Shown: piece by piece, positions 8,988-51,880 of the stretch
How positions within the stretch are numbered: the first letter of the stretch is position 1
Layout of the letters: each line of letters opens with the position of its first letter
Origin: an uncultured Prevotellaceae bacterium
GTDB lineage: Bacteria > Bacteroidota > Bacteroidia > Bacteroidales > Bacteroidaceae
Direction of reading: 5' to 3'
NCBI GenBank assembly: GCA_947167515.1
Contig: CAMVIM010000025.1
Location: forward strand, 1 to 56,080
DNA: 56,080 bases
Translations under genes and position numbers: made by a program
Notes under the pieces: generated by a model
What the model saw: only the letters and a program-made list of their open reading frames with translations
What the model was told of the DNA's origin: nothing
The model's database searches: none

Positions 8988-9072
8988 GCCTCAAAATCGG
9001 TGTGACTCACACCCCTACCATAGGTGTGAGTCACACCCTATACAGGGGTGTGACTCACACCGATTTTGAGGC
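8988..9072. repeat. Three-unit 24-bp periodic palindrome array
   Basis: The 15-bp palindrome GGTGTGASTCACACC occurs at 8999, 9023 and 9047, exactly 24 bp apart; the central base is C, G, C. Outer flanks GCCTCAAAATC and GATTTTGAGGC extend the first and third copies into a 29-bp inverted repeat with one mismatch, so the element can form a long cruciform. It sits between the terminator of the CNNM gene and the macroglobulin promoter. No T-tract follows it. It shares its architecture, but not its sequence, with 21071-21169 and 39432-39522. Confidence 0.85.
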
Positions 9073-9079
9073 AACGAAA

Positions 9080-9123
9080 CAGCCCTTTCAGAGAAAAAGA
9101 AGATTTCTTCTCCGAAAGGGCTG
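9080..9123 (-). terminator. Terminator of the CNNM gene
   Basis: CAGCCCTTTC (9080-9089) pairs perfectly with GAAAGGGCTG (9114-9123). On the minus strand the stem is followed by TTTCGTT, and it lies 30 bp after the stop codon. Confidence 0.65.
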
Positions 9124-9153
9124 CAATCTCATTTCATGCAAATGTCTTGGATG

Positions 9154-10233
9154 TCACTTATGCTGCTCTTTTTGCATCTGTTTCCACTGGGCTTTGGCCA
9201 GCTCCTGCATGTCCACCACCTCATCTTTCTCATCGACAATTTCAAAACCAAGCATAGTCTCAATCACGTCTTCGAGGGTGACAATACCACGCAAGGTGCC
9301 GTATTCGTCAATGATGATGGATATGTGCTCTTTCTTCTCGAGCAGTTTCTCCCAAATGGTGGAGACATCTTCGTCTTCGGAAAAGGAAAGGATGGGACGT
9401 GCCAACTCGCCCAGTTTGGTGTCAAACTTATCTTCAGCCAGACGTTCGAGGATTTCCTGACGCAACACATATCCCGTGATGTAGTCGCTTTCCTCACCTT
9501 TATAGACAGGAATGCGCGAAAAGTTCTTGTACTCTTCATCATGATAGAACTCGCTCAGGGTCATCTCCTCCTCAGCCATCGCCACCACCACACTAGGTGT
9601 CATGATTTCGTGAGCTGCCACGCTGTCGAGTTTGAGCAGGTTCTGAATCATGCGGTTCTCTTTCTTTTCGAGCACACCTTCCTCGGTGCCAACCGTAACC
9701 ATCGCCGCCACTTCGTCGCGTGTGACCGACTCCTGAGTGGAAGTATTGCCGACCACATGGGTGATTTTCTCCAAAAGAACCACCAGCACATAGGTGATAA
9801 CCACATAGATATGGATAATGCTGCTGGCAGGCAATGCGAGTTTGCGCCAATATGTTGAGCCAATGGTTTTGGGTACGATTTCGGAGAAAACGAGGATGAG
9901 GAAGGTGAAGACTCCCGAAACCACACCCACAAAAAGACTGGTCTCGTCGGATGTAGAATAGTGAGTTGCCGCATAGCCTGCTGCCTGCGAACCCACAAGG
10001 GATGCGCCCACCGTATTGGCTATCGTGTTGACAATCAAGATAGCCGAAATGGGGCGATCGATGTTGGTTTTATACTGTTTCAGACGCTCCCACCCTTTGA
10101 CTCCTTGTGTTTCGAGGGTGGTCACGTATGACATGGGGGTTGAAAGAATAGTCGCTTCGAGCACAGAGCAGAGTGCTGAAATGACGAGCGACAACAACAT
10201 GTAGATAAGAAGGAGGGTTATTTGCGAATCCAT
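9154..10233 (-). CDS. CNNM/DUF21 membrane protein with CBS pair
   Basis: A 359-residue inner-membrane protein. The N-terminal DUF21/CNNM domain (about 1-185) has an N-terminal helix and further hydrophobic helices around residues 60, 100 and 135. A tandem CBS pair (about 205-325) ends with IIIDEYGTLRGIVTLEDVIE, a typical nucleotide-binding CBS signature. The C-terminal CorC_HlyC domain found in longer relatives is absent. Family members include CorC/MpfA-type proteins linked to Mg2+ or Co2+ export; the substrate here is inferred only. The ATG is preceded by GGAGGTGA at 8-nt spacing, an unusually strong Shine-Dalgarno site for Bacteroidetes. It is flanked by terminators and appears to be a single-gene unit. 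Confidence 0.88.
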   Translation of the reverse strand: MDSQITLLLIYMLLSLVISALCSVLEATILSTPMSYVTTLETQGVKGWERLKQYKTNIDRPISAILIVNTIANTVGASLVGSQAAGYAATHYSTSDETSLFVGVVSGVFTFLILVFSEIVPKTIGSTYWRKLALPASSIIHIYVVITYVLVVLLEKITHVVGNTSTQESVTRDEVAAMVTVGTEEGVLEKKENRMIQNLLKLDSVAAHEIMTPSVVVAMAEEEMTLSEFYHDEEYKNFSRIPVYKGEESDYITGYVLRQEILERLAEDKFDTKLGELARPILSFSEDEDVSTIWEKLLEKKEHISIIIDEYGTLRGIVTLEDVIETMLGFEIVDEKDEVVDMQELAKAQWKQMQKEQHK

Positions 10234-10288
10234 ATTATTTCACCTCCCTTGTTGTTGTTCAATGTGTTAGATACAATAAAATTTATAA

Positions 10289-10308
10289 GGCGGCTACTGT
10301 TTTCCGCC
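10289..10308 (-). terminator. Weak terminator after upp
   Basis: The stem GGCGG/CCGCC with a 10-nt loop is followed on the minus strand by TTATAAATTTT. It lies about 40 bp beyond the upp stop codon. Confidence 0.45.
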
Positions 10309-10349
10309 GGATAACTATCTGAGTCCATTGAAAGTTGAATTGGTTAATA

Positions 10350-11012
10350 CTAAAGTTTACTGCCGTATGCGAGGTCACCGCAGTCACCAAGACCTGGCAC
10401 AATGTAGCTACGCTCGTCCAGTCCAGGGTCAATGGCACCACACCAAAGCGTCACATTCTCATAGTTGCCGAATGATTTCTTGATGTTATCGACTCCCTTC
10501 TGCGACGCGATAGCACAACATAAATGCACGGTAGCGGGCTTTCCGTTCGTAATGAAGGCATGGTAGCCAAGTTCAAAACTGGCTCCCGTGGCCAGCATTG
10601 GGTCGGCAATAAGGAGCACCTTGTTGGTGAGATCGGGCGATGCGATATACTCGACCTTCACATCCACGGTCTTGCATTCCTTATCCCTATAATAGCGATA
10701 AGCGGACACGAAGCCATTATCGGCATGGTCAAAGATGTCAAGAAAGCCTTGATGGAAAGGAAGACCAGCACGGAAAATGGTGGCCAGCACAACCTCATCA
10801 GCAGGCACAGACACTTTTGCCTCAGCCAGCGGTGTCTGAACGATCTTCTCTGAATATTTCAAAGTCTTGCTGACTTCGTATGCTATCATCTGCCCGATAC
10901 GAGCCAAATTGTGGCGGAAACGTGCACGGTCTTTCTGGATGTTCACATCGCGCAGCTCAGCTATATACTGATTGATTACAGTATTTTGCTTTGCAAAGTT
11001 GACTACTTTCAT
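10350..11012 (-). CDS. upp: Uracil phosphoribosyltransferase
   Basis: A 220-residue enzyme that makes UMP from uracil and PRPP (pyrimidine salvage, cytoplasm). The PRPP loop is LLIADPMLATGAS (about 133-145), and the C-terminal uracil-binding segment VPGLGDCGDLAYG ends the protein, both diagnostic of Upp. I take the ATG at 11012 (MKVVNF). An upstream in-frame extension to 11069 would overlap the preceding gene and add residues absent from the family. It follows the HAD gene by 20 bp, so the two are probably co-transcribed from the wzc side. A link to polysaccharide synthesis could be UMP/UDP supply, but that is only an inference from position. Confidence 0.92.
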   Translation of the reverse strand: MKVVNFAKQNTVINQYIAELRDVNIQKDRARFRHNLARIGQMIAYEVSKTLKYSEKIVQTPLAEAKVSVPADEVVLATIFRAGLPFHQGFLDIFDHADNGFVSAYRYYRDKECKTVDVKVEYIASPDLTNKVLLIADPMLATGASFELGYHAFITNGKPATVHLCCAIASQKGVDNIKKSFGNYENVTLWCGAIDPGLDERSYIVPGLGDCGDLAYGSKL

Positions 11013-11032
11013 TGTATTCTCTTTTTTAAGGT

Positions 11033-11485
11033 TTATCTTTTCTTTTTTGCAGATTTCCAGAACATCCACTTAGGATATGGAGGTTCATAGTCTTCATGTT
11101 CCTGCATGAGATCGGCTCTCATGACTTGCTTCCAAGTCATCCTCTTAGAGATGATTTTATATATAGTGGGCCAATCAGGAAGCCCGCCCACATTGCGGTC
11201 ATCGATGAAGATGTCGGCACTCAACTTGCAAGAAAGATGCTCACTCTTCCCCTCCGGAAACAAAGCCGATGTATCACTATTGACAGCATAAAATTCAACC
11301 CCTCGGTCAGCACACCACTTCACGGCATCATCGAGCAGTTTGCCATCCCGCATGGTCCAAAGCACCAGCTTGTGACGGTCAGCCATCAGCATTTTCAGCA
11401 CCTCGGTGGCGAAAGGGCGTTCCTCCCCTATCTCCGGGTATTCATGCTCTACGATTGTACCATCGAAATCTACCGCAATAATCAT
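11033..11485 (-). CDS. HAD-family hydrolase (BT_0820-like)
   Basis: A 150-residue HAD phosphatase-type protein. The motif I DFDGT holds the nucleophile D6 and acid D8, motif II is LWTMRD, and the acidic motif is FIDDRN; a cap domain is nearly absent. I start at ATG 11485 because AAAGGAGAGGAT stands just before it; an upstream in-frame ATG at 11524 would overlap the end of wzc. It resembles a Bacteroides protein of solved structure but unknown substrate. It lies 35 bp after wzc and 20 bp before upp in one likely transcript. Since no Wzb-type low-molecular-weight tyrosine phosphatase is seen next to wzc, this protein is a possible phosphatase partner, but nothing in the sequence proves it. Confidence 0.75.
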   Translation of the reverse strand: MIIAVDFDGTIVEHEYPEIGEERPFATEVLKMLMADRHKLVLWTMRDGKLLDDAVKWCADRGVEFYAVNSDTSALFPEGKSEHLSCKLSADIFIDDRNVGGLPDWPTIYKIISKRMTWKQVMRADLMQEHEDYEPPYPKWMFWKSAKKKR

Positions 11486-11520
11486 ATCCTCTCCTTTTTT
11501 CAAGATTTCGCCTTTTTCAA

Positions 11521-13953
11521 TCACACTTCTTCCAGTTTGGCTCCATCACCATAACCGTAGCCGTAACCATAAACGTTATTGTTCTTCCCTGAGCCATAGT
11601 AGTAGCCCTGATTGTAATAAGAATGCGCTGAATTATTTTGCTTCACAGCATTGAAGACAATATTAATGTTGGGGAGTCGGTCGTTCTCATAAAGTGTATT
11701 GATAAAGCCCATATCTGCCTTCAAGGTGTAGTTGGCACGAACGACGTAAAGAACCACATCTGCCAATTTTGCGATGGTCAAGGTGTCGCTGACAAGACCT
11801 ACAGGAGCCGTATCCATCAAGATGTAGTCATACTTTTTCTTCAAGTAGTTGACGGCACTGGCAAGATTCTCGCGTTCAAGAAGCTCTGCAGGGTTGGGAG
11901 GAATTGTTCCTGCTGGTATAATATCCAAATTATCACTGACAGTAGTCTTCTGAATGACGGATTCAAGGAATTTGTAATCATCGGGCATACGTGAAAGGAA
12001 GTCCGAGAGACCTTTTTCCGTTTCAGACAGGTTGAAAATACCTGCCAAACGAGGTTTGCGAATATCGAGTCCCATGATGAGCACCTTCTTTCCTGCAAAA
12101 GCCATACTGGCAGCCAAGTTAGAGGACACGCAGGTCTTACCTTCACCAGCCTGGGTGGAAGTGAAAAGAATCACTTGCTGGTCGGGTTTGAGCACAAACG
12201 GAAGGTTGGAGCGCAAAGAACGATATACCTCCATCATGACACTGTTGCGGTTTTCTTTCAGCACAATGGTGCGATTCTCCTTTGCCAAAACTTTCACGAA
12301 GGGGATGGTTCCCAACAGAGGTGCTTTGCAAAGAGAAGCCAATTCTTCTTCGTTTTCAATACGATAACGGAAGAAATTACGCAGGAAATAATAAAGATAA
12401 GGCAAAATCAGGCCCAGTGCCAAAGCACCCAAAAGAATCAGATTGCGTCGTGGGGATACTGGACCATACACAATGGGTTCCTCTATCAACTTTGCCTTGT
12501 AAGCGGCAGAAGCAAGCTGAATCAAATTTTCCTCACGCTTTTTCAGCAGCATCAAATAAAGTCCAGACTTCACATCCTGTTGACGGTTGATGTCAACCAA
12601 AGCCCTTTCTCTCAATGGCGCAGACGAAATGCGGCTGCTATACTTGCTCCGCTGACTTTGCAGGTCATTACGGCGCATGGCTGCCTGACGCTTAGCACTC
12701 TGAAGCGACGTACGCAATGCGGAGAAATATCCATCAGCTTCCTGTGTAATGCTTACAACCGCAGGACTTGACTCTGGAGTGGAACGAAGTAAACGATTAC
12801 GCTCCAGAATTTTCTCATTATATTTTTGAATAGTAGCGTTCAGAGCGTTATCATTCAATCCGATATTTGCAGGAACCACCTGATACTCATTGCGTTTATC
12901 ATCACAATATTCTATCAGATAGTTAATGAGGTCTATCTGTGTCCCCACATCCACCAATTTCTGTTCATAGAGGATGTTCTGGCTGACATCAACCGTAGCA
13001 TCAGCCGTGTAATCGACAATACCACTATTCTGTTTGAACTGAGCCAGTTCCGCCTCCGTCATGTTGAGGTCCTTACTGATGTCTGCCAGACGCTCATCAA
13101 TGAAGTCACGAGAACGAGTTGCCTCAATATTATTATCGATGTTTGCATCTTCATTATAAGCATCAACCAACTTGTTCAAGTAGTCACAACAACGCTCGGG
13201 AAGATTATCCGTCAGAGTCAGTTCTGCCACAGTGGTAGTACGGGATGTAGCTTCTACGGACAAGGCTGCGGCATAAGCCAAAGCCACCGATTCCAGCGGA
13301 TAGATAGTAGCTTTCAGTTCATTCTCCATATACGCCATCAAACCTGTCGGATTCTTCTGAATCACAACATTTCCATAAGGAGTTGAGACATGGGCCGGGA
13401 ATGAGGAAAGAGTTTGTTCTGTCTCAAAATCACCAGCCTTTAAGGCCACCACCAAATTCTTATCTTCCTGCTGCATTTGCATTGTAATGGGGATTGAAAG
13501 GGAGTCCAACATATCTTCTTGGATATCCACAAGATATGGAGAGTATTTTCCATAAATCTCCACTTTTTTCAGCCCATTTTTAGTGTAATACATCGAATAG
13601 AGCTTCAAGTCTCTCACCACTTTCTTGTTCAAAGTCTTGGTGCCAATGATTTCCAGCTCATTTTCGAAACCATTACTGCTATTCGTCATACCCATCTCAG
13701 ACAAGGACTTGTTCATCTGATTCGAATAATAGGTATTCTCTTTATCCTTGATGAGGATCTTGGAAGAAACGCTATATTTAGGTGTTGCATACCATAAGTA
13801 TGCCACAGCCACCACCATACAACAAAGAACTGAGGCAATAAACCAATATTTATACCTCAGCATGATTACCCATAGGTTTTTCAGATCAAATTTCGGATCC
13901 TCTCCGTACTCTGCTTCATAGGCAGAATACTCTTTTTCCTTATTTCTTGACAT
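11521..13953 (-). CDS. Wzc-type polysaccharide co-polymerase and tyrosine autokinase
   Basis: An 810-residue inner-membrane protein. It has a cytoplasmic N-terminus and a first transmembrane helix at about 33-53 (YWFIASVLCCMVVAVAYLWY). A Wzz-type periplasmic domain with long coiled coil follows, then a second helix near 495-515 (LILLGALALGLILPYLYYF) and a C-terminal BY-kinase. Kinase motifs are Walker A GEGKT (603-607), Walker A' VLIMGLDIRKP (624-634) and Walker B YILMDTAP (709-716). The tail carries nine Tyr in a Gly-Tyr rich cluster (779-801), the expected autophosphorylation site. It controls chain length and export of the polysaccharide together with the Wza protein. It is divergent from the WcaJ-like transferase gene, and its promoter -7 TATCTTTG is at 13974-13981. 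Confidence 0.92.
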   Translation of the reverse strand: MSRNKEKEYSAYEAEYGEDPKFDLKNLWVIMLRYKYWFIASVLCCMVVAVAYLWYATPKYSVSSKILIKDKENTYYSNQMNKSLSEMGMTNSSNGFENELEIIGTKTLNKKVVRDLKLYSMYYTKNGLKKVEIYGKYSPYLVDIQEDMLDSLSIPITMQMQQEDKNLVVALKAGDFETEQTLSSFPAHVSTPYGNVVIQKNPTGLMAYMENELKATIYPLESVALAYAAALSVEATSRTTTVAELTLTDNLPERCCDYLNKLVDAYNEDANIDNNIEATRSRDFIDERLADISKDLNMTEAELAQFKQNSGIVDYTADATVDVSQNILYEQKLVDVGTQIDLINYLIEYCDDKRNEYQVVPANIGLNDNALNATIQKYNEKILERNRLLRSTPESSPAVVSITQEADGYFSALRTSLQSAKRQAAMRRNDLQSQRSKYSSRISSAPLRERALVDINRQQDVKSGLYLMLLKKREENLIQLASAAYKAKLIEEPIVYGPVSPRRNLILLGALALGLILPYLYYFLRNFFRYRIENEEELASLCKAPLLGTIPFVKVLAKENRTIVLKENRNSVMMEVYRSLRSNLPFVLKPDQQVILFTSTQAGEGKTCVSSNLAASMAFAGKKVLIMGLDIRKPRLAGIFNLSETEKGLSDFLSRMPDDYKFLESVIQKTTVSDNLDIIPAGTIPPNPAELLERENLASAVNYLKKKYDYILMDTAPVGLVSDTLTIAKLADVVLYVVRANYTLKADMGFINTLYENDRLPNINIVFNAVKQNNSAHSYYNQGYYYGSGKNNNVYGYGYGYGDGAKLEEV

Positions 13954-13973
13954 CTTTTATTTATATTTTTGTG

Positions 13974-14004
13974 CAAAGATAACGACATTTTTTTATATAA
14001 GAAA
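13974..14004 (-). promoter_or_regulatory. Promoter of wzc
   Basis: The minus strand reads TATCTTTG (13981-13974), a full -7 match, with TTTC in place of TTTG at the -33 position 19 bp upstream. It lies 20 bp before the wzc ATG. Confidence 0.6.
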
Positions 14005-14151
14005 GGTTTTCTGTCAAAAATATACGTTTTATCGTCATTACTTGCCCCATACCCAAAAAGAGAAGATGGTTCCGAACTACTTCTTTTAATAGAGTTTGAA
14101 GTAAACAAGAGAAGAAAAAGCAGCCGTTTCGAAAATTAAAACCCAAAAAGT

Positions 14152-14182
14152 TTTTCGCATGACATTATTTTGTGTAACTTTG
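14152..14182 (+). promoter_or_regulatory. Promoter of the WcaJ-like transferase
   Basis: TAACTTTG at 14175-14182 matches the -7 element exactly; the -33 region at 14152-14155 is TTTC. Transcription would start near 14190. The in-frame ATG at 14159 therefore cannot be the start of the downstream gene, and ATG 14291 is favoured. Confidence 0.6.
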
Positions 14183-14290
14183 CACAAAATTTCTGCGGAA
14201 ATGTATTTTTGGGAAAGAGATTTCCACATTATATATTTCTTTGCCCTTGGTTTCGACGCATGGAGCAGAAGGATTACACACGGAATTAGA

Positions 14291-21037: not shown

Positions 21038-21070
21038 CATTCCTGTGAAAACGGACTTTCACATTTCCCC

Positions 21071-21169
21071 TACGTGCAAGCCCGTTACACATTCAAATGG
21101 AAGCCCGTACAAGATGTAATTTGTTGCCCATACAAATTACATCTTGTACGGGCTTGCATGTAAAGAGGA
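21071..21169. repeat. 23-bp periodic array with inverted units
   Basis: Units start at 21078, 21101, 21124 and 21147. The first two begin AAGCCCGT. The third begins TTGCCCAT, and the AAGCCCGT word returns as its complement ACGGGCTT at 21148. The whole second unit (21101-21123) is the exact reverse complement of 21133-21155, a perfect 23-bp stem with a 9-nt loop. An outer pair (TACGTGCAAGCCCGT with ACGGGCTTGCATGTA) gives an alternative fold. It lies between the wzi-lipoprotein unit and the WecA-like gene. Confidence 0.85.
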
Positions 21170-21285
21170 ACACCCGTACTTTTTTCCAACGGAATCCTTT
21201 TTTGCAATTATAAAGAAAATAGTCCTATGTTTTCACAATAAATAACAAGTTTTCACGTTTTACAAGTAAGAGAGAGCTAAACTAT

Positions 21286-27704: not shown

Positions 27705-27984
27705 AACGAGTTCTACTGATAGCGAGGAGCGCCCCCATTTACTGGAGGCGGCTTCGACTCTCTTTTCGTTGCAAAGTTAGCACTTCTTTCACAATTACAC
27801 AAATTAGCATAATTCTTTTTGTGGAATTTCCCAGCCCGCCTAATACAATGATTCCTTTTTTACACACAATTTGTGTTACGACGCTTGCAAGCCCCAAACT
27901 ATTTTAGTTGTAAAGGCAACGGGATAGTTACTTTATATCACACTCGTCTCTAAGGTTGTTAAGTAACCCACAAACATTAAAAAA
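27705..27984. other. Upstream region of the glycosyltransferase unit
   Basis: It contains the promoter at 27772-27803, a GC-rich leader at 27720-27770, the palindrome ACACAATTTGTGT near 27863-27875 and the palindrome GCTTGCAAGC near 27883-27892. No gene is visible. Positions 27800-27984 have no clear function. Confidence 0.5.
27772..27803 (-). promoter_or_regulatory. Promoter of the GT4-GT2-WbsX-GT unit
   Basis: The minus strand reads TTTG (27803-27800), 20 bp, TAACTTTG (27779-27772). It is an exact Bacteroidetes consensus, about 70 bp before the ATG at 27704. Confidence 0.75.
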
Positions 27985-28352
27985 TTTAGGTCGATTACAT
28001 AAAAAGATTTAGCTTGATTATACAAATAAATTTAGCTTGATTACAAAAATACATTTAGCTTGATTACAAAAATGCATTTAGCTTGATTACAAAAATACAT
28101 TTAGCTTGATTATAAAAAAGCATTTGGCTTGATTACAAAAAAGCATTTGGCTTGATTACAAAAAGGTGTAATCAAGCCAAAATATAAAGGATATATAAGT
28201 GAAAAGAAGATGGATATACAAGCTATAGAAAGATGAGGATACAAGCTATGCATCAAAGGGCTTGTGAGATATAGGACAGAGTGGATACAAGCTACATAAG
28301 ACGAGGCTTGCGAGTCCAATGTAGTGGAACTCGCAAGCCTTAAATGGTTGTA
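27985..28352. repeat. Sixteen-unit 23-bp periodic array
   Basis: From 27985 eight units with consensus TTTAGCTTGATTACAAAAA run at exactly 23 bp (27985, 28008, 28031, 28054, 28077, 28100, 28123, 28146). The same 23-bp phase continues to 28352 in more diverged units (28169, 28192, 28215, 28238, 28261, 28284, 28307, 28330). Most of the latter carry the complementary core CAAGCY; two begin CTTGYGAG. Where orientation switches, a perfect 15-bp hairpin forms (28146-28160 with 28167-28181). A second one lies at 28304-28340. It fills the gap between wecB and the GT4 promoter. Confidence 0.9.
28304..28340 (-). other. Hairpin downstream of wecB
   Basis: AGGCTTGCGAGT (28304-28315) pairs perfectly with ACTCGCAAGCCT (28329-28340), with a 13-nt loop, 58 bp after the wecB stop. 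No T-run follows on the minus strand, so it is not a standard intrinsic terminator. It may stabilise the 3' end of the wecB transcript. It is built from two units of the 23-bp array. Confidence 0.55.
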
Positions 28353-38175: not shown

Positions 38176-39399
38176 ATGAAACTACAAGAACGTTTTTTGA
38201 AATATGTGTCGTTCGACACACAGTCATCGGAGGAGACTGGCAAAACTCCTTCGACCGAGAAGCAGCGTGTTTTTGCTGAATATCTGAAAGAAGAGCTTAT
38301 CAAGGAGGGCTTGCAAGAGGTTGAACTAGACGAACTTGGATACCTCTACGCCACTTTGCCTGCCAATACCGACAAGTCGGTGCCCACCATCGGCTTCATC
38401 GCCCACATGGACACCAGTCCTGACGCATCGGGAAAGGATGTGAAACCACGTATCATCCAGCACTATGACGGTAGCGACATCATCCTGTCCGAGGGCATCG
38501 TCACTTCTGTGGAAAAGTTCCCTGAACTGTTGGCACACAAAGGGGAAGACCTCATCGTGACGGATGGCACCACCCTGCTCGGCGCTGACGACAAGGCGGG
38601 CATTGCCGAAATCGTGCAAGCGATGGTGTATCTGCAAGAGCATCCAGAAATCAAGCACGGGAAGATTCGTGTTGGATTCAATCCTGATGAAGAGATTGGC
38701 CTTGGCGCGCATCATTTCAACGTAGAGAAGTTTGGTTGCGACTTTGCCTACACGATGGACGGCAGCGAAGTGGGCGAGATTGAATTTGAGAACTTCAACG
38801 CCGCCTCTGCAAAAATCACCATCAACGGGTGTTCCGTGCATCCAGGTTATGCCAAAGATAAAATGATAAACGCCGCTCGCATCGCCACAGAGTTAGCGAG
38901 CATGCTGCCAGCTGACGAAACGCCTGAAACTACGGAAGGTTATGAAGGCTTCTTCCATCTCACCAGTCTCAATGGCACCTGCGAGAAAGCCCAGCTCTCC
39001 TTCATCATCCGTGACCACGACCGAGAGTATTTCGAGAGCAGAAAGTCAGAAATGTCTGATATTGTGGAGGCTATTAACGAGAAATACGGCAACGTAGCCA
39101 CCCTCGAACTGAAAGACCAATACTACAATATGAGGGAGATGGTGGAAGCCAAGATGCACATCATCGACATTGCCAAGCAAGCCATTTCCGAAGCAGGCAT
39201 GACACCTAAAGTGAAAGCCATTCGAGGTGGAACAGACGGAGCACAACTCTCCTTCAAAGGACTCCCCTGCCCCAACATCTTCGCTGGAGGTCTCAACTTC
39301 CACGGCCCTCATGAGTTTTGTCCTGTGCAGAGTCTGGAGAAAGCGATGATGACGGTCGTCAACATCTGCACTATCACAGAAAAGGAACTCGGACAATAG
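38176..39399 (+). CDS. pepT: Peptidase T (tripeptide aminopeptidase)
   Basis: A 407-residue dizinc M20 peptidase that removes the N-terminal residue of tripeptides in the cytoplasm. Visible metal and catalytic sites are HMDTSPD (H77, D79), LLGADDKAG (D138), NPDEEIG (E172, E173), TMDGSE (D195) and the C-terminal NFHGPHEF. Length matches E. coli PepT (about 408). It probably shares a transcript with the C1B peptidase gene. It converges on hslR with a hairpin-forming repeat array between them. Confidence 0.95.
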
Positions 39400-39431
39400 A
39401 CTCAACGGAATTGCCCTTTGAAAGGTGCTTT

Positions 39432-39522
39432 CACAACCTCATAATCGACGTGCCCCACATCGATTCGTCGACGTGGGGCACATCGGTCAATCGACATGGG
39501 GCACGTCGATTGAGAGGTTGTG
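39432..39522. repeat. Three-unit 23-bp periodic hairpin array
   Basis: The 17-bp word CGACGTGCCCCACATCG at 39446 recurs in complementary orientation at 39469 and 39492, exactly 23 bp apart each time. Outer flanks CACAACCTC (39432-39440) and GAGGTTGTG (39514-39522) extend units one and three into an imperfect stem of about 34 bp. It fills the gap between the convergent pepT and hslR genes and ends 3 bp from the hslR stop. It could serve as a two-way terminator but lacks T-runs. Confidence 0.85.
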
Positions 39523-39525
39523 ATG

Positions 39526-39966
39526 TTACAATTCCTCCTCGTCCATCTCTTCCTCATCATCGAAATCGAAATCAAAATCGAAGTCTCCGAAGAAGGCTGG
39601 TTGGATGAACTCATCGAGGTCGCGACGCTCTTTCTTGGTGGGACGGCCAGTACCTCTTGCCCGACCGACGAAACCGCTAATGCGGTTCATCTCCAAGAGT
39701 TCCAGTTGTTCCTTGGGAGTGACATTTTCCAGCACTTCAGGCACAAGTTTGGCGCCCACTCGGTTTTGGATGGCTTTGAGCACCTTGAAAGCATACGTGA
39801 TGGGAGGCTTGCGCACTTCTATCACATCACCTTCCTTTATCATTTTGGAAGCCTTCTGCTTGACTCCAGCAATAGTGACACGCCCATTCTTGCAAGCATC
39901 AGCCGCGATAGAGCGTGTCTTGAAAATACGTGACGCCCAAAGCCATTTGTCCAATCTTGCTTCCAT
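39526..39966 (-). CDS. hslR: S4-domain RNA-binding protein (Hsp15-like)
   Basis: A 146-residue cytoplasmic protein with an N-terminal S4 domain (about 3-65: RLDKWLWASRIFKTRSIA, GRVTIAGVKQKAS). Hsp15 rescues stalled 50S subunits carrying peptidyl-tRNA in E. coli. Its position directly before pth, which cleaves peptidyl-tRNA, fits that role. After GRPTKKERRDLDEF the C-terminus ends in an unusual acidic tail of alternating Asp-Phe then Asp/Glu (about 127-146). Two bases separate it from pth. Confidence 0.88.
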   Translation of the reverse strand: MEARLDKWLWASRIFKTRSIAADACKNGRVTIAGVKQKASKMIKEGDVIEVRKPPITYAFKVLKAIQNRVGAKLVPEVLENVTPKEQLELLEMNRISGFVGRARGTGRPTKKERRDLDEFIQPAFFGDFDFDFDFDDEEEMDEEEL

Positions 39967-45171: not shown

Positions 45172-45645
45172 ATGATTAAGAAAATTCTCGCCATCTCTGG
45201 CAAACCCGGGCTTTACAAGCTCGTATCACGAGGCAACAAGAGCCTCATCGTTGAGACTGTTGACGAACAAAAGAAACGCATCCCAGCCTTCGGGGCAGAC
45301 CGCGTCGTATCACTCGGCGACATCTCCATCTACACGAACGATGACAGCGAAGTTCCTCTCGCTTCCGTGTTCGAGTCCATCAAGCAGAACTATGGTGAAA
45401 AGCCCCTCGACCTCTCACCTAAGAAAGCTTCGCAGAACGACATCATTGCCTTCTTCTCTAAGGTGCTTCCCAACTACGACACCGACAGAGTGCGTGTATC
45501 TGATATGCGCAAAGTCCTCTCATGGTACAACATTCTCACTGCCAACGGCATCACCGAGTTTGAAAGCAAGGAAGAGGAAAATGCAACCGACGAGCAGAAA
45601 ACGACAGAGGAAGAGGCACCCAAACAGCCCACACTCCAAAAATAA
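45172..45645 (+). CDS. DUF5606 family protein
   Basis: A 157-residue cytoplasmic protein of unknown function, conserved in Bacteroidetes next to coaE. The N-terminal ~130 residues are conserved (KILAISGKPGLYKLVSRG, KRIPAFGADRVVSLGDISIY, MRKVLSWYNILTANGI). The last ~30 residues are Glu/Thr-rich and disordered. It closes the operon. Confidence 0.8.
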   Translation: MIKKILAISGKPGLYKLVSRGNKSLIVETVDEQKKRIPAFGADRVVSLGDISIYTNDDSEVPLASVFESIKQNYGEKPLDLSPKKASQNDIIAFFSKVLPNYDTDRVRVSDMRKVLSWYNILTANGITEFESKEEENATDEQKTTEEEAPKQPTLQK

Positions 45646-45664
45646 CATGAGCCCAACAATGGCA

Positions 45665-45725
45665 AGACCAATCACCAGACCTTTATATGAATCATAGTAA
45701 GAAGGTCATGATGAAGTAATGGTCT
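45665..45725. other. Nested hairpin after the DUF5606 gene
   Basis: AGACCA (45665-45670) pairs with TGGTCT (45720-45725), and inside it GACCTT pairs with AAGGTC, leaving an internal loop. It lies between the DUF5606 stop and the shared terminator and may be part of the 3' untranslated region. Confidence 0.4.
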
Positions 45726-45763
45726 CGCATCAAGATGCCATATAACCCTATGGTAACAAAAGA

Positions 45764-45797
45764 GAAGGGGTTGTGCCTACCGAGGCACACCCCCTTC
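45764..45797. terminator. Bidirectional terminator between DUF5606 and the efflux operon
   Basis: GAAGGGGTTGTGCCT (45764-45778) pairs with AGGCACACCCCCTTC (45783-45797), 14 of 15 positions. T-rich runs follow on both strands (TTCATTTTCG plus; TCTCTTTTG minus). It lies between convergent units. Confidence 0.8.
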
Positions 45798-45841
45798 TTC
45801 ATTTTCGTTCCTTCACACGAAGGAAGCTATTTCTATCCCAC

Positions 45842-47206
45842 TTACTTTGTGCCACCGCCGAGGGCTATGTACAAAGCGATGAGAGCTTGAGAACCATCGT
45901 AGAGATTCATGGCTTCACTAAGTTGGGCACTGAGCAAGCTCTCCTGTGCCGTGAGCACTTCGAGATAGCTTGCCTTACCATTATCCATCAGCTCGTGAGT
46001 GCCGATATAAGCATCTTGAAGCACTGCCACCTGACGCTTGTAATAGCCGTCCTTCTCCAGCGCCGCTTGGCAATCAGCCATCGCCTCATTCACTTGGTTA
46101 CCTGCATCAATGACAGTCTGCACATACTTGTTCTGCACATCCTCCTGAGTGAGTTTGCTGACTTTGAGATTCGTGAGCAACCTGCCACGTGCAAAGATGG
46201 GCTGCGTGAGCGAAGCCACTGCTGTCCACAACAACTTACCAGGATCCGTCACAACACCTGCATTGTTCGTCCATCCCAATGCTCCCTGCAAGGTAATGGA
46301 AGGATAGAAAGCGGAACGGGCAGCCTGTGTGTTGTAGAAGGCTTCTTCCATTGCATGCTCAGCCATGCGTACATCCGGACGATTCGTAAGCAGTTGAGCA
46401 GGCACACCAACACTGAACCGACGAGGCAACTCATAGTTTCCCCAACGCTTGCGCTGGATGTGTTGAGGTGTGATGGCCAACAAACGGCAAAGAGCATTCT
46501 CAACCTGATGGATGTTGCGTTTCGTATCAACCAGTTGGGTCTTTACATTCAGATAAGAAGACTCCATCTGATTGACCGCAGTCGAATAGGACTTGCCGTT
46601 TTCCCAAAGCGACTTTTGGGTCTCTAACGAAGCATTCCACAGACTATCGGTCGCCATAAGGATTTCCATCTGGCGGTCAAGCACCAACAAAAGAATGTAG
46701 TGCTGAGCCACAGAAGAAACCAAGTTGGCACGTACCGCTTCCTCTTGAGCTTGGGCCTGCAACAACAGAGCCTTCGACTTGCGCTTCTGGCTGGTAATGG
46801 AGCCAAACACATCCAAATCCATGCTCATTTGCAGGGACAAATCGTAAGCCTTGGAAACGGGGCTATTATCGAAACTCGACAAAGTGCCAGATGGAGAAAA
46901 ATAGAGCGATGGCAAATAAGCCAGCTTGGCAGCACGAAGCGATGCCTCCGACTTCTCCACTGCAATGCGAGCAGAGTTCAAATCGGTATTACGCACCAAT
47001 GCGGTGTCAATGAGTTGCTGGAGTAATGGATCCGTAAAGAACTCACGCCAAGACATTTCCGCCAACTGTACGCCATCTGTTTTCACGACATCAGCCCCAT
47101 AGGCATCTGCTGGCACTTCTGACGTTGATTGATATTTGTTGTAGATGCCACACCCCGAAAGCACGAAACAAACGGCTGCGGCAAAAATATATGCTATTCT
47201 TTTCAT
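45842..47206 (-). CDS. RND efflux outer-membrane factor (TolC/OprM type)
   Basis: A 454-residue outer-membrane channel. The lipobox LSGC places the lipidated Cys at about residue 19. Two OEP domains are visible (about 60-250 and 270-445), with signature segments such as NTDLNSARIAVEKSEASLR, LTNRPDVRMAEHAM and ARSAFYPSITLQGALGW, the NodT-family pattern. It is the last gene of the efflux operon, 33 bp after the RND pump gene. Confidence 0.92.
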   Translation of the reverse strand: MKRIAYIFAAAVCFVLSGCGIYNKYQSTSEVPADAYGADVVKTDGVQLAEMSWREFFTDPLLQQLIDTALVRNTDLNSARIAVEKSEASLRAAKLAYLPSLYFSPSGTLSSFDNSPVSKAYDLSLQMSMDLDVFGSITSQKRKSKALLLQAQAQEEAVRANLVSSVAQHYILLLVLDRQMEILMATDSLWNASLETQKSLWENGKSYSTAVNQMESSYLNVKTQLVDTKRNIHQVENALCRLLAITPQHIQRKRWGNYELPRRFSVGVPAQLLTNRPDVRMAEHAMEEAFYNTQAARSAFYPSITLQGALGWTNNAGVVTDPGKLLWTAVASLTQPIFARGRLLTNLKVSKLTQEDVQNKYVQTVIDAGNQVNEAMADCQAALEKDGYYKRQVAVLQDAYIGTHELMDNGKASYLEVLTAQESLLSAQLSEAMNLYDGSQALIALYIALGGGTK

Positions 47207-47239
47207 AACTTACTCGTTTTCAGTTTGACATCATCGATA

Positions 47240-50200
47240 CTAATTTTCCGGCTGCTTCGTTCCACCTTGGAATCTCTCATGCAACTTCTGGAACACAATG
47301 AAGAAGGCAGGAACCACAAACAGCAGGGCAATGGTGCCTATCGTCATACCACCCACCACGCCAAGAGCAAGAGCACGGTTACCGTTGGCACCGGCACCTC
47401 CTTCGATAATGAGCGGTATCATACCTGCAATCATGGTCACCACCGTCATGAGGATAGGACGCAGACGTTCCTTGCAGGCTTCGAAAGCGGCCTCGGTTAT
47501 GCTCATACCTTGAGCACGACGCTCAGAAGCAAACTCCGTTATCAGAATAGCAGTCTTGGCCAACAAACCAATCAACATGATGACACCCGTTTGCAGGTAG
47601 ATGTTGTTGTCCATGCCGGGAATCTCCTGCGTATAACCAAGGTAGGCAAACACAAAGGCACCCATCAATCCGAAGGGAACACTTAAGAGCACTGCCATCG
47701 GTGTGAACCATGAGTTGTAGAGAGAGGCAAGGATGAGATAAATCAAGATAGCACAGATGATGTAGATGACAGCTGTGGCATTAGAACCAGCAGCCTCCTC
47801 GACCTCGCGCGACATACCGCTGTACTCATAGGCAGCCGTTGATGGCATTTCTTCCTTAAACACCTCGGCAATGACCTTGTGGGCATCACCCTCGGTGTAG
47901 CCACTGCCCGGTTTCACGATACAGGTAATGCTCTGGAACAAGTTGAAGTGCTCGATGTTCGATGGACCAACAATCTCCTTCAGTGAGACAAACTCGGAGA
48001 TGGGTGCCATCTTACCGCCCTTCACCTGCACGAAGATGTTATGCAGCGACTGCGGGTCAAGACGATATTCGGGCGATGCAGCGGCCATGATACGATAGAC
48101 CTTACCAAACTGGTTGAAGTTGCCGATATACGCACCACCGCAGAAAGAACCAAGGGTGTTGAGTACGATTTCAGGTGTCACGCCAGCACGGTCGCATTGG
48201 GCGGCATCGACATCAACCTGAAACTTCGGGAAACGCTCTGAGTAAGTTGACACAGCGGAACTAATCTCTGGACGCTCAGACAGTTTAGCAAGGAAATGCT
48301 CAGTCTGCCGGGCAAACTCCGACAGGTTGCCATCGGTGGGATCCTCGACAGCCAACATAATGTCGTTGCTCGTTCCATAACCAGGAATCTGAGGCATCTC
48401 GAAAGGAATCACCACCAAGTTCTTCAGGTCTAAACAGTCATAATAGAAACGCCCTGCAACGAGAGCAAGCAAATGATCCATGCCTGGGCGATCGTCCCAG
48501 TTCTTCAGGCGCACCACCATAGTGGCATAGTTGGAACCAGCACCCGTCAGCATACCGTAACCACAACTTACAGCAAAGCTCTCCAGTTCGGGAATCTTCT
48601 TCACCTTTTCCTCCACCTGTTTCACCATCTCACGTGTCTGTTTCAGCGTGGTACCCTCGGGAGCCTGTATCTCAACGAGGAACACACCCTGGTCTTCCTG
48701 AGGAACGAGACCAGACGGCAGACTCTTCATGAAGAACACCAACAGCACAGCGGCCACAACCAACAGACCCCATGCCAAAACGGGACGCTTGATGAACTTC
48801 TGTACTGCTTTACTATACTTATTGTATATAGCGTTGTAGCTGATGGTATAGGCCTTTTTGGTATAATAATTCAGGTTCTTTCCCTCCTTCTTGCCTTCTG
48901 TCACGCGCATCATGATGGCACAGAGGGCAGGACACAATGTCAGAGCCGATACGCACGAAAGGCCGACGGACGAAGCAATGGTCACACCGAACTGAGTGAA
49001 GAATGTACCAGAAGTGCCGGGCATGAACATCACGGGAATAAACACAGCCATAAACACCAAGGTACATGAGACAACGGCTACCGACACTTCACTCATCGCC
49101 TGTCGGGTGGCTTCGCGGGCATCGCTGATGCCACCCTCCATCTTCGCCATGACCGCCTCAACCACCACGATGGCATCATCGACCACCGTACCGATGGCCA
49201 GCACCAGTGCGAACAGCGTCAGAATGTTGAGCGAGAAGCCCGCCATTGAGACGATGGCAAATGTACCCAACAGTGACACAATAATAGAGATGGATGGAAT
49301 GATGGTGGCCTTAAAGTTCTGCAAGAAGAAGTACACCACGAGAATCACGAGGATGATAGCAATGACAAGCGTCTCCACCACATTGTGGATGGCTGCGAAA
49401 AGGAAGTCATCGCTGGTCATCAAAGTTACAAACTCCAATCCGGCAGGCATCGTTTCCTTCAACTCCTCAAACGTCTTGTTGATGCTGGCGTTCACCTGCG
49501 TGGCATTGGCACCTGGTGCAGCGAACACCAAGAACATGGCACCCGGCTTATCCATGATATTCGAGGTGAAGTTGTAACTCATGGCACCAATCTTCACCTC
49601 AGCCACATCGCTCAGATGGAGCATACCGCCACCGCTGGTGCGTAGCACAATGTCATTGAACTCCTCGACCGTCTTCAGCGTACCCTTGTACTGCATGGAG
49701 TACTGGTAGGAGTTGCCCGACTGCTCACCCAATGTACCCACAGCCGACACGAAACTCTGTCCGCCAATCGCTGCAAAGACATCGTTAGGGGTCAGGCCAT
49801 ACTGAGCCATCACATCGGGTTTCAGCCAGATACGCAGGGCATAGGTGTTACCAAAACTCTGCACGTTACCCACACCGGTGATACGCATCAAACGAGGCTT
49901 GATATTAATATCGACATAGTTCGACACGAAGTCCTCGTCATACTTTCCATCGGCACTCCTCACAGCAAAAATCTGCAAGATATTGTTCTGGCGTTTCTCC
50001 ACCTTCACGCCGACCTTGTTCACGTCGGCTGGCAGCAGAGCCTGTGCGCGGCTCACGCGGTTCTGCACGTTCACCGCAGCCATGTCAGCATCGGTACCCT
50101 GCTTAAAGTAAACGTTTATCTCCACGCTACCGTCAGAGGAAGCCTTAGACGTCATGTAGGTCATGTCGGTCACACCGTTGATAGCCTCTTCAAGTGGCTG

Positions 50201-50389
50201 GATGACCGATTTCATAATTGTATTCTCATCAGCACCTGAATAACTGGTGCTGACATTCACCGTAGGCGGCGCAATATCGGGATACTGCTCAATTGGAAGT
50301 GTACCCATCGAGATGTAGCCCACCAGTGCAATCACAATCGAGATGGCACACGCCATCACGTATTTGTTAATAAATATATTATTCTTCAT
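47240..50389 (-). CDS. RND multidrug efflux pump (HAE-1, AcrB-like)
   Basis: A 1049-residue inner-membrane transporter with 12 predicted helices and two large periplasmic loops. The proton relay is intact: the Asp pair in GTVVDDAIVVVEAV (TM4) and the Lys in GLLAKTAILITEFA (TM10). The N-terminus MKNNIFINKYVMACAISIVIA and LPIEQYPDIAPP are typical of HAE-1 pumps. It exports drugs, bile salts or similar amphiphiles with the adaptor (MFP) and the outer-membrane channel. 26 bp separate it from the adaptor gene. Confidence 0.95.
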   Translation of the reverse strand: MKNNIFINKYVMACAISIVIALVGYISMGTLPIEQYPDIAPPTVNVSTSYSGADENTIMKSVIQPLEEAINGVTDMTYMTSKASSDGSVEINVYFKQGTDADMAAVNVQNRVSRAQALLPADVNKVGVKVEKRQNNILQIFAVRSADGKYDEDFVSNYVDINIKPRLMRITGVGNVQSFGNTYALRIWLKPDVMAQYGLTPNDVFAAIGGQSFVSAVGTLGEQSGNSYQYSMQYKGTLKTVEEFNDIVLRTSGGGMLHLSDVAEVKIGAMSYNFTSNIMDKPGAMFLVFAAPGANATQVNASINKTFEELKETMPAGLEFVTLMTSDDFLFAAIHNVVETLVIAIILVILVVYFFLQNFKATIIPSISIIVSLLGTFAIVSMAGFSLNILTLFALVLAIGTVVDDAIVVVEAVMAKMEGGISDAREATRQAMSEVSVAVVSCTLVFMAVFIPVMFMPGTSGTFFTQFGVTIASSVGLSCVSALTLCPALCAIMMRVTEGKKEGKNLNYYTKKAYTISYNAIYNKYSKAVQKFIKRPVLAWGLLVVAAVLLVFFMKSLPSGLVPQEDQGVFLVEIQAPEGTTLKQTREMVKQVEEKVKKIPELESFAVSCGYGMLTGAGSNYATMVVRLKNWDDRPGMDHLLALVAGRFYYDCLDLKNLVVIPFEMPQIPGYGTSNDIMLAVEDPTDGNLSEFARQTEHFLAKLSERPEISSAVSTYSERFPKFQVDVDAAQCDRAGVTPEIVLNTLGSFCGGAYIGNFNQFGKVYRIMAAASPEYRLDPQSLHNIFVQVKGGKMAPISEFVSLKEIVGPSNIEHFNLFQSITCIVKPGSGYTEGDAHKVIAEVFKEEMPSTAAYEYSGMSREVEEAAGSNATAVIYIICAILIYLILASLYNSWFTPMAVLLSVPFGLMGAFVFAYLGYTQEIPGMDNNIYLQTGVIMLIGLLAKTAILITEFASERRAQGMSITEAAFEACKERLRPILMTVVTMIAGMIPLIIEGGAGANGNRALALGVVGGMTIGTIALLFVVPAFFIVFQKLHERFQGGTKQPEN

Positions 50390-50415
50390 AATGCAGAAGC
50401 CATTTTATTCACTGA

Positions 50416-51549
50416 TCAGTTTTCACTCTTCGCTCCAGCAGGAAACAGCACCTTCTGTCCCTCGTGTACGTTATTAGCACCGACGGTCACAATCTTGTCA
50501 CCCACGTTCAGACCACTCTTCACAATGAAGTCCTTACCGTTGCCGACATCTTCCATTGTCACGTCAATAGTTGTTGCCGTACTGTCAGCCTGCACTTTAT
50601 AAACAAACGATTTGTCCTGCAGACGCACCACTGCACTCTGAGGGATGACTATCACGTTTTTCTCAACAAAAGGCAGCACAACCGTACCTTGAATGCCTGA
50701 ATACAGATGACCATCAGGATTAGGGAACGACACCCTACAGGTCAATGAACCAGTGGCTGCATTCACCACACCCGTCAGGCTGGTGACACGACCTTTGTGA
50801 GGGTACTCCGTACCATTCTTCATCACAAATGTCGCTTCAGGCAGATTGGCAATGTACCTCTCCTTGTCCTCCGCATTGATACCCTCTTGCACCATTGCCT
50901 CAACGACAGCCTCAGTCACCGAAAACTCTGCCTCCATCTTCGTGTTACCACTCAGCACGGTCAGCTGAGTCATCGGTGACACCTGGTCACCACCACGTAC
51001 AGGAATCTCACCGATAATACCCGACACAGGAGCCGAAATGGTGCAGAAACCAAGATTCACCTTTGCACGGTTCACTGCCGCACGAGCCTGAGCCACCGTA
51101 GCTTGAGCCTGACGATAAGTATTTTGTGAGTTGTCAAGCATATAACTGCTCACAATCTTCTTATCAAACAAGTTTTTGTTCGACTCATACTCCAGCTTTG
51201 CCGAGTTTTCCTGAGCCAAAGCTGCTTGCAAATTGGCCTGAGCCGCCTCCAGTTCCAGCTGAGCATTACGCGAGTCAATCACGAAGAGCGTCTGCCCCAC
51301 CTTCACTTGCTGACCCTCACTCACACAAATTTTCATCAGCTGACCACTCACCTGAGGCGTAATGGTCACGTCTGACTGACCCTTCATCCTGGCACTGAAC
51401 TTAGCAGGAATCTCAATGTCTGTTTTTTTGACAGTCATCGTTTCAAACGACGTTAGCACTTCCTTGGGCATTTCCGGTCCGCACGAGGTCAGTCCACCGA
51501 CCACTGCGCCGAGCACCAAAGCACACTTAGCAAAATACATTCTTTTCAT
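50416..51549 (-). CDS. RND efflux periplasmic adaptor (AcrA-like)
   Basis: A 377-residue membrane fusion protein. The lipoprotein signal ends LTSC at about residues 20-23. The biotinyl-lipoyl-like domain (QVSGQLMKICVSEGQQVKVGQTLFVID) is split by an alpha hairpin (about 100-165), followed by the beta-barrel domain (VSGIIGEIPVRGGDQV, LTVLSG) and the membrane-proximal domain. First gene of the operon; ATG 51549 with a second in-frame ATG at 51540. No local regulator gene is seen. Confidence 0.93.
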   Translation of the reverse strand: MKRMYFAKCALVLGAVVGGLTSCGPEMPKEVLTSFETMTVKKTDIEIPAKFSARMKGQSDVTITPQVSGQLMKICVSEGQQVKVGQTLFVIDSRNAQLELEAAQANLQAALAQENSAKLEYESNKNLFDKKIVSSYMLDNSQNTYRQAQATVAQARAAVNRAKVNLGFCTISAPVSGIIGEIPVRGGDQVSPMTQLTVLSGNTKMEAEFSVTEAVVEAMVQEGINAEDKERYIANLPEATFVMKNGTEYPHKGRVTSLTGVVNAATGSLTCRVSFPNPDGHLYSGIQGTVVLPFVEKNVIVIPQSAVVRLQDKSFVYKVQADSTATTIDVTMEDVGNGKDFIVKSGLNVGDKIVTVGANNVHEGQKVLFPAGAKSEN

Positions 51550-51640
51550 GTATGATTAAATTTATGATTGTTGTATATTTACAAAATCGTCTTTCCCTAT
51601 ATATAATATAAATATGTACAGGAAGACATTTTTTCACTTG

Positions 51641-51648
51641 CAAAGATA
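51641..51648 (-). promoter_or_regulatory. -7 element of the efflux operon promoter
   Basis: The minus strand reads TATCTTTG, a full -7 match, 92 bp upstream of the adaptor ATG. No TTTG at the -33 position. Confidence 0.5.
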
Positions 51649-51788
51649 CACATTTTTCTAAAAAACCATAACATTTCCATTCATTTTTTTTAATTCTCCC
51701 CTTTTTGCCCCTCCATCTTTCTCCAAAATCGCTTGTAAAGACCATGCAATGAACGAGAATTCACGCCCCAACCACATCCCCACTTTCC

Positions 51789-51880
51789 CCCTACGTCCTA
51801 CGCCGTTGCACATACAAATTGTCTTCCACTCCAATTGCAAATTGTACACCGTTCCTATTGCAATCTGCACGACGTTCCAT
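51789..51880. repeat. Diverged 23-bp periodic array
   Basis: Four 23-bp units start at 51789, 51812, 51835 and 51858. Units three and four share 16 of 23 bases (TTGCAA...GTTCC); units two and three share 15 of 23 (CAAATTGT core); unit one is weaker. The period is the same as at 21071, 27985 and 39432, with a different core word and all units in one orientation. Confidence 0.6.

What the first reader, a model, noticed from the sequence alone, without database searches (positions are those of the whole stretch)
8988..51880. A family of intergenic arrays with a fixed 23-24 bp period and locus-specific words
Five separate gaps (8988-9072, 21071-21169, 27985-28352, 39432-39522, 51789-51880) share one architecture: units on a strict 23-bp (once 24-bp) step, with in most of them some units reverse-complemented yet on, or near, the same step. 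The core words are unrelated between loci but nearly identical or clearly related within a locus. This is unlike REP or MITE families, which share sequence between loci. It suggests a process that copies or flips a local 23-bp word in place, or selection for a 23-bp spaced protein or RNA target. Explanation is inference; the periods and words are read directly.
Basis: partly seen in the sequence, partly recalled or inferred. Interest (0 to 1): 0.85.

Follow-up and report, generated by a model that had tools for sequence, protein, structure and literature searches.

The report
Genus-specific triple-palindrome intergenic repeat elements
The odd 23-letter repeats in the gaps between genes are real; at least two of the five belong to a family of small repeat elements scattered through this gut bacterium's genome, whose DNA words differ between related species and seem to change together within a species, which is unusual and still unexplained.

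Summary
In detail: all five gaps carry arrays on a 23-bp step (24 bp at 8988-9072), beyond 1000 shuffles each. In 856 kb of the genome 23 of 378 gaps have a strong lag-23 repeat, shuffles none. 'Unrelated, locus-specific words' fails genome-wide. The 8988 word occurs 109 times (control 0); the 50 sites listed form 14 exact 24-bp triplets and 4 pairs, inside an 85-bp element. It was found in one genus only: 18 of 45 genomes, against 0 of 188 sampled genomes of other genera of the family. The 39432 array has similar outer arms with another word; the 27985 word recurs at two other loci.
Species carry different dominant words. At four orthologous loci the element stayed in place while its inner arms took the species' version; one looks inverted in place. 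So 'copied or flipped in place' gains partial support, as concerted evolution of dispersed elements. RAYT transposase, paired-arm covariation and terminator-like placement are not supported. Constant-size, variable-sequence tandem repeats are already described (Subirana & Messeguer), as is a 23-nt repeat in a Porphyromonas MITE. Function is unproven; ordered protein-binding sites are my leading inference.

The parts
8988..9072 (.). F1 element, 85 bp: arm GCCTCAAAATC, three 15-bp dyad words GGTSTGASTCASACC at 8999, 9023, 9047 (24-bp pitch, 9-bp spacers), inverted arm GATTTTGAGGC
21071..21169 (.). array of about four units on a 23-bp step, units 2 and 3 inverted copies (23 of 23 in the best frame; F7-like word CGTACAA..TTTGT); an orthologous, differing array by eye in the same gap of G014, none seen in G013, G036, G002
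27979..28181 (.). F2 array: about eight direct units of ATTTAGCTTGATTACAAAAATAC (23 bp) ending in one inverted unit (28167-28181); two other F2 loci in this genome
28206..28300 (.). weaker GATACAAGCTA repeats beside the F2 array, once on the 23-bp step
39424..39522 (.). F6 element: arms GGTGCTTTCACAACCTCATAATC / GATTGAGAGGTTGTG, three near-palindromic units around CGACGTGGGGCACGTCG on a 23-bp step; arms match the F1 arm profile
51789..51880 (.). direct array of about four diverged units (CCGTTGCACATACAAATTGTCTT type) on a 23-bp step, no significant inverted copies

Best explanation
The arrays are the bodies of a superfamily of short non-coding elements dispersed through intergenic DNA of one genus of Bacteroidaceae, apparently of rumen and hindgut. 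For the best-studied member (F1) the element is about 85 bp: two short inverted arms around three 15-bp dyad-symmetric words at a 24-bp pitch. Other members keep the plan with another word and a 22-24 bp pitch. SHOWN: dispersal, near-fixed architecture, presence in this genus and not in the sampled others, arms alike in two word families, different dominant words in different species, and species-specific inner arms at orthologous places. INFERRED: copies are homogenised within a genome by ectopic gene conversion or template switching, which self-complementary units make easy in either orientation, giving in-place flips; and the dyads and pitch persist because a dimeric DNA-binding protein, or an unidentified mobilising enzyme, occupies them side by side. 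I favour protein-binding sites over an RNA role.
For: F1 word 109 sites, backward control 0; the 50 sites listed fall at 18 places, 14 of them strict triplets at 24 bp. The 12-mer arm GCCTCAAAATCG has 25 sites, control 0, at 21 distinct places, all 11 bp from an F1-type word, 18 of 21 with 24/24 spacing. F1 in 18 of 45 genomes of the genus (own included), 0 of 188 sampled genomes of 29 other genera. F5 word: 14 of 45, another species profile. Seven F6 arms scored against the F1 arm profile, each best of 3-12 shifts: six lie at or below 2e-4 of background positions, the seventh (L063 left) at 0.0018. Species-specific inner arms. At one of two orthologous F1 loci of G010/G011 the triplet and spacers are almost unchanged while the gap DNA around them has diverged strongly. 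Placement of 23 F1 copies with called neighbours: 15 tandem, 7 divergent, 1 convergent, 0 inside ORFs. Spacers behave as direct repeats, not paired arms.
Against: No protein, conversion event or transcript was observed. Position 4/12 fails to form a standard pair in 9 of 25 first, 16 of 25 middle and 13 of 25 last units, which fits neither strict dimer sites nor hairpins. Presence is patchy: 27 of 45 genomes of the genus have no exact F1 word, odd for a global binding site. The concerted pattern could also come from repeated insertion at preferred places; only four orthologous loci were compared for it, one of them (L198) matched on its right flank only, and G014 was sampled at 17 places while it has 87 word sites. 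The two loci compared in G010/G011 show no flip. F2, F4, F7 and F8 are mainly direct arrays without F1 arms as far as I saw and may be a different thing.
Confidence: 0.55

Rival explanations
1. Non-autonomous transposable elements (MITEs) moved by an insertion-sequence transposase in trans; the triple dyad is internal filler or transposase-binding sites, and species-specific sequence reflects recent bursts.
For: Terminal inverted arms, dispersal, copy number from 0 to 275 word sites between congeners; G014 has an F1 copy where this window has only a short gap near 14038-14107; BrickBuilt of P. gingivalis combines a MITE with 23-nt repeats (PMC4596501).
Against: I saw no constant target duplication; outer arms differ from copy to copy. 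No autonomous parent was found, but I searched only for Y1 transposases and one candidate terminal repeat. Bursts alone do not explain shared orthologous copies carrying the species' own inner sequence.
Confidence: 0.3
2. Bidirectional transcription terminators or structured RNAs: the arrays are hairpins selected as RNA.
For: Strong predicted folds at four of five (z -12.8, -9.3, -5.6, -9.3; 51789 -1.3). In the Hsp15-PepT convergent gap several congeners have self-complementary arrays, two of them (L051, L078) followed by a T run.
Against: In 25 F1 elements outer-arm pairing is 213 of 625, permuted mean 222; spacers pair less than permuted (51 against 91 of 225). 13 of 43 arrays with known context lie in divergent gaps, which hold no gene end; F1 is in a convergent gap in 1 of 23. 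No terminator-like site at 39380-39560.
Confidence: 0.12
3. Neutral minisatellites made by replication slippage, with the common period set by DNA geometry or polymerase behaviour.
For: Unit number varies within F2 (8, 7 and 4 direct units by eye at the three loci); direct arrays with diverged units.
Against: Does not explain near-exact triplets with the same arms at 21 places, or slow change of a triplet inside fast-changing flanks at one locus.
Confidence: 0.15
4. REP/BIME elements mobilised by a RAYT (Y1) transposase.
For: Short intergenic palindromes in high copy number. The main spacer, read on one strand TATGGTAGG, holds GTAG next to the palindrome: 18 of 50 spacers in own, 8 of 26 in G014 have GTAG on either strand.
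Against: Y1_Tnp absent from this genome. Over the cut-off it is in 14 of 45 genomes: 4 of 18 F1 carriers and 10 of 27 without F1; of nine genomes with 40 or more F1 words one has it. GTAG is in 0 of 16 spacers of G010/G011.
Confidence: 0.05

Closest known systems
Constant-size, variable-sequence bacterial tandem repeats (Subirana & Messeguer; PMC8161180, parts 1 and 3 of 5 and passages read; their earlier paper, cited there as reference 3, I did not see)
   Same: Several repeat families of one fixed unit length (20-23 nt in many bacterial groups) and unrelated sequence in one genome; they too suggest a protein that needs a constant repeat size, or small RNAs
   Different: Here F1 has mostly three dyad-symmetric units with inverted outer arms in a dispersed element of near-fixed length; their search asks for at least four repeats. 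'palindrom' and 'hairpin' have 0 hits in the main text
BrickBuilt MITE of Porphyromonas gingivalis (PMC4596501; abstract, section 7 part 1 and passages read)
   Same: 23-nt tandem unit, intergenic, multi-copy, short inverted ends; Porphyromonas is, from recall, in the same order Bacteroidales
   Different: A 23-nt repeat with IS5-like ends GAGACCTTTGCA and non-repetitive leader and tail; here many words and arms ending ACAGCCTCAAAATC
REP/BIME and REPINs (PMC3733652 and PMC12306157 passages; others search listing only; general features recalled)
   Same: Short intergenic palindromes, high copy, lineage-limited; GTAG beside some of the words
   Different: No link to Y1 transposase seen, triplet at a fixed 24-bp pitch, placement not tied to gene ends

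Membership tests
REP/RAYT elements | REP-associated Y1 tyrosine transposase in genomes rich in the repeat | tested here: not met
   PF01797 absent from own genome; over cut-off in 1 of 9 genomes with 40 or more F1 words
REP/RAYT elements | GTAG or CGTC tag at one end of the palindrome (from the title and abstract start of PMC3733652) | tested here: inconclusive
   GTAG in 18 of 50 F1 spacers of own and 8 of 26 of G014, 0 of 16 of G010/G011; CGTC in none of these spacers (24/24 triplets only)
MITE | terminal inverted repeats and many dispersed copies without coding capacity | tested here: met
MITE | target site duplication at clean empty sites | tested here: inconclusive
   L063/L060 flanks GGAAGTACC/GGAAGCACC could equally be a deletion; own site for L204 too diverged
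MITE | autonomous element with matching ends | tested here: inconclusive
   only one candidate terminal repeat searched in own genome, 0 hits; insertion sequences were not surveyed
Constant-size variable-sequence tandem repeats | one unit length shared by several sequence-unrelated families in a genome | tested here: met
   lag 23; eight or more word families by eye
Constant-size variable-sequence tandem repeats | at least four units per array | tested here: not met
   F1 elements seen have two or three units; F2 has more
BrickBuilt | IS5-like ends GAGACCTTTGCA | tested here: not met
   F1 arm consensus AGCCACTTCCACAGCCTCAAAATC
Intrinsic terminators | located after gene ends, avoiding divergent gaps | tested here: not met
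   13 of 43 arrays and 7 of 23 F1 copies in divergent gaps

The most novel reading that the evidence does not exclude
A genus-wide population of triple-dyad elements whose word is rewritten across the copies of a genome together, in place and in either orientation, because the elements track a fast-evolving sequence-specific protein: a bacterial parallel to a satellite and its binding protein chasing each other.
Probability: 0.15. Interest if true: 0.88.

Novelty: new variant of a known kind. Interest (0 to 1): 0.62.

Why it matters
Constant-length, variable-sequence tandem repeats have been reported without a settled explanation. Here the length comes with a plan (three dyads and arms), a genus boundary in the genomes sampled, species-specific words and orthologous copies whose inner arms differ by species, so the question of what keeps the length while changing the word can be tested by comparing close strains and by looking for the protein.

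Tried and rejected
Word-independence between loci: rejected. RAYT/REP: not supported, though GTAG lies beside part of the words. RNA hairpin selection: paired-arm covariation tested on 25 F1 elements, negative (its search expression fixes most word positions, so only arms, spacers and free positions inform, and only 24/24-spaced triplets entered). Palindrome-centre spacing scan: only a mild excess in own (23 bp: 5 against 0 shuffled; 24 bp: 8 against 2), in relatives 0 at 23, 7 at 22 and 4 at 24, against 0; the lag scan served better. A GAGGYTGTGTCAAAA end, suggested by one G014 gap, has no match in this genome. No Rfam family reached its gathering score at the arrays. Searches outside chromosomes, each for one query: 27985 array in plasmids, F5 and F2 double units and the 24-bp F1 double unit in viral contigs, F1 element in phages: no match. 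Presence/absence cases L062/L055 and L069 are 7-bp-repeat insertions by eye, another class. The lag scan of relatives included coding DNA. G010/G011 (89-93% identical over the compared 28 kb): two orthologous F1 loci, no flips. Of 17 G014 places, 11 were not resolved as shared or absent. One search counts only elements of 61-63 bp span with 45-bp flanks (30 own, 14 G014); other copies were dropped. One search scored the F6 arms one base off; one search corrected it, taking the best of several shifts; the right arm of L027 was not scored, nor the cut F6-like arrays of L064 and L069, and the background includes the scored elements themselves. My notebook says 22 arm places; recounted, 25 sites are 21 places.
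Full report
OBSERVATION. I read the five gaps and tested each against 1000 dinucleotide shuffles. The stated steps are right: 24 bp at 8988-9072, 23 bp in the other four. Four of five also have significant inverted copies (200 shuffles each); 51789-51880 does not. Over 856 kb of the same genome (window plus 40 stretches of 20 kb, of 3.68 Mb), 23 of 378 intergenic regions show a 14/16 match at lag 23 and 10 at lag 24, against means of 0 and 0.2 in five shuffled sets. At a looser threshold (13/16, lags 22-24) 45 intergenic regions were listed, some of them probably not arrays.

WORDS RECUR. From that listing I read at least eight word families by eye on a 22-24 bp step. The 27985 word (F2) also lies at C2:112018 and C23:5107. 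The 8988 word (F1, GGTSTGASTCASACC) has 109 sites in the genome and none for the backward control; the 50 sites listed fall at 18 places, 14 strict triplets and 4 pairs, three of the pairs with a degenerate third unit and one a true pair. The 12-mer GCCTCAAAATCG has 25 sites, control 0, at 21 distinct places, every one 11 bp from an F1-type word, 18 of 21 with 24/24 spacing, two with 23/24 and one with a degenerate middle unit. F1 is therefore an element of near-fixed length, 85 bp.

SHARED FRAME. The array at 39432 (F6, CGACGTGGGGCACGTCG) looks unrelated in its word, but its arms fit the F1 arm profile. Seven arms of four F6 elements (three in this genome, one in L063) were scored, each as the best of 3 to 12 shifts: the left arm of 39432 at 6.8e-6 of intergenic positions (about one position, probably itself), the right arm of L013 above all, L063 right 1.4e-5, L013 left 8.2e-5, L027 left 1.3e-4, 39432 right 2e-4, L063 left 0.0018, which is weak after shifts. 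By eye the outer parts of the two words are also alike (TCGGTGTG-n3-CACACCGA and TCGACGTG-n3-CACGTCGA).

TAXONOMIC RANGE. A search with ribosomal protein L25 gave 44 named loci, all from MAGs titled Bacteroidales, Prevotellaceae or Bacteroidaceae bacterium except one Candidatus Minthosoma caballi; many titles name rumen, other forestomach or horse faeces. F1 is in 18 of 45 genomes of the genus, own included (own 109, G020 275, G010 108, G011 107, G035 105), and its exact word is absent from 27, including one 99% complete. In a family sample of 201 genomes it is in 8 of 13 of this genus and 0 of 188 of 29 other genera; the backward control had single hits in four of these. F5 (GTACCCSWSGGGTAC) is in 14 of 45 with another profile: G065 78, G002 58, G020 43, G018 31, own 6. 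In the places listed (capped lists), F1 steps mainly by 24 bp in own, G003, G010, G011, G014, G022, G035 and G063 and by 23 in G033 and G024; F5 steps by 23 or 46.

SAME GAP, DIFFERENT CONTENT. In the gap between the Hsp15-like gene and peptidase T (window 39400-39525), among named loci plus own where the two genes are less than 900 bp apart, 9 of 16 genomes have an array by my reading: F6 in own, L063 and L067; F5 in L051, L059 and L078; other words in L053, L068 and L074; seven have none, two of these with overlapping genes and one with a terminator-like hairpin. L045, with 5.8 kb between the genes, was left out. The genomes are related, so these are not nine independent events. In the CNNM-A2M gap (8897-9153) own has F1, G014 another inverted repeat and G013 a 21-bp array of TTCATAACTTATGAA (by eye). 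In the lipocalin-WecA gap (21038-21285) own and G014 share an array whose units 2 and 3 are inverted copies; at one position, by eye, both own units carry G and both G014 units carry T; G013, G036 and G002 show no array there.

CONCERTED CHANGE. I took 17 F1 places of G014 (Prevotellaceae bacterium UBA4359, judging by the equal contig length 73449). Four have flanks matching own F1 loci (one of them, L198, on the right side only); one (L204) lies where own has only a short gap near 14038-14107; one (L203) lies beside Hsp15, where own has F6; eleven were not resolved. At the four shared loci the arm 3-mer next to the array is ATC in own (8 of 8 arms) and ACA in G014 (7 of 8). Over the sampled copies of regular length, own has 51 of 60 arms ATC and 3 ACA, G014 4 of 28 ATC and 23 ACA (Fisher p 4e-13 treating arms as independent). 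At L197/L172 the asymmetric outer arms are shared (20/21 and 18/21) while the inner part matches better inverted (57/69) than direct (46/69). At L205/L031 and L207/L193 the direct reading wins (54 against 46, and 54 against 51, of 69); L198/L028 is blurred by a 1-bp deletion (23 direct, 38 inverted, of 68). In G010/G011 (89-93% identical over 28 kb) both orthologous F1 loci keep orientation; at one of them the array is nearly unchanged inside strongly diverged gap DNA, at the other the flanks are conserved too. Their spacers (GACCATGCC and GAGGGTGCC types) differ from the CCTACCATA of own and G014.

FUNCTION TESTS. Strong folds exist at four arrays, but on 25 F1 elements outer arms pair no better than permuted (213 against 222 of 625) and spacers pair less than permuted (51 against 91 of 225): the spacers behave as direct repeats. 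The variable position 4/12 forms a standard pair in 16, 9 and 12 of 25 first, middle and last units. Arrays are not confined to gene ends: of 43 with both neighbours known, 13 are in divergent gaps and 7 in convergent ones, against 59 and 44 of 264 gaps of 80 bp or more; for F1, 7 divergent and 1 convergent of 23 with called neighbours, none inside an ORF. This speaks against terminators. Y1 (RAYT) transposase is absent from this genome and over the cut-off in 14 of 45 genomes of the genus, 4 of 18 F1 carriers and 10 of 27 others. Against my own first reading, the GTAG tag of one REP class does lie in 18 of 50 F1 spacers of own and 8 of 26 of G014, but in 0 of 16 of G010/G011. No F5 or F2 double unit and no 24-bp F1 double unit matched the viral collection; the F1 element had no match in phages and the 27985 array none in plasmids.

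WHAT IS KNOWN. Subirana and Messeguer describe bacterial tandem repeats of constant size (20-21 or 52 nt; 20-23 nt in many groups) and variable sequence, with several families per species, and suggest a protein that polymerises on DNA or small RNAs (PMC8161180). Part 1 of two related papers of theirs (PMC6749651, PMC8625621) was also read. BrickBuilt in Porphyromonas gingivalis is a MITE with 23-nt tandem repeats (PMC4596501). The case here fits the first description in unit length and word diversity and the second in dispersal, and differs from both, in what I read, by the triple-dyad plan, the different words inside similar arms, and the concerted change. My paper searches listed no paper that I recognised as describing this for Bacteroidaceae; subscription journals are mostly not covered.

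VERDICT. A real, high-copy element superfamily, in the genomes sampled limited to one genus: a new variant of a known but unexplained kind. Dispersal is well supported for F1, concerted change moderately (one species pair); the role as protein-binding sites is inference, and the link of F2, F4, F7 and F8 to F1 beyond the common step is unproven.

Noticed in passing
L069:11296-11333, L119:17515-17553, L062:7707-7755: Insertions built of 7-bp direct repeats, two of them folded back as an inverted repeat (GAGGAATTAGGAATTAGG type); by my reading they explain at least part of the lag 7/14/21 peaks, and the one in L069 sits at a gene junction that is nearly closed in several relatives.
   Followed up: partly
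L011:13481-13784, L016:2159-2435: F4 direct arrays (GATACGGGTGTG, 23 bp) stand in the same gap as F1 elements in two of the four F4 loci, suggesting composite elements.
   Followed up: no
L007:1045-1168, L021:7750-7945: Within one array the word changes from one family to another while the 23-bp step continues (by eye).
   Followed up: no
window 51911-51960: Perfect 23-nt inverted repeat with A and T runs beside the 51789 array, an ordinary-looking bidirectional terminator.
   Followed up: no
window 2314-3199: Cluster of eight tRNA genes on the minus strand.
   Followed up: no
L163, L167, L168, L028 flanks: A second motif CGTACAAATTGACCAAT flanks several F1 elements, in direct or inverted orientation; it resembles the F7 word (by eye).
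   Followed up: no
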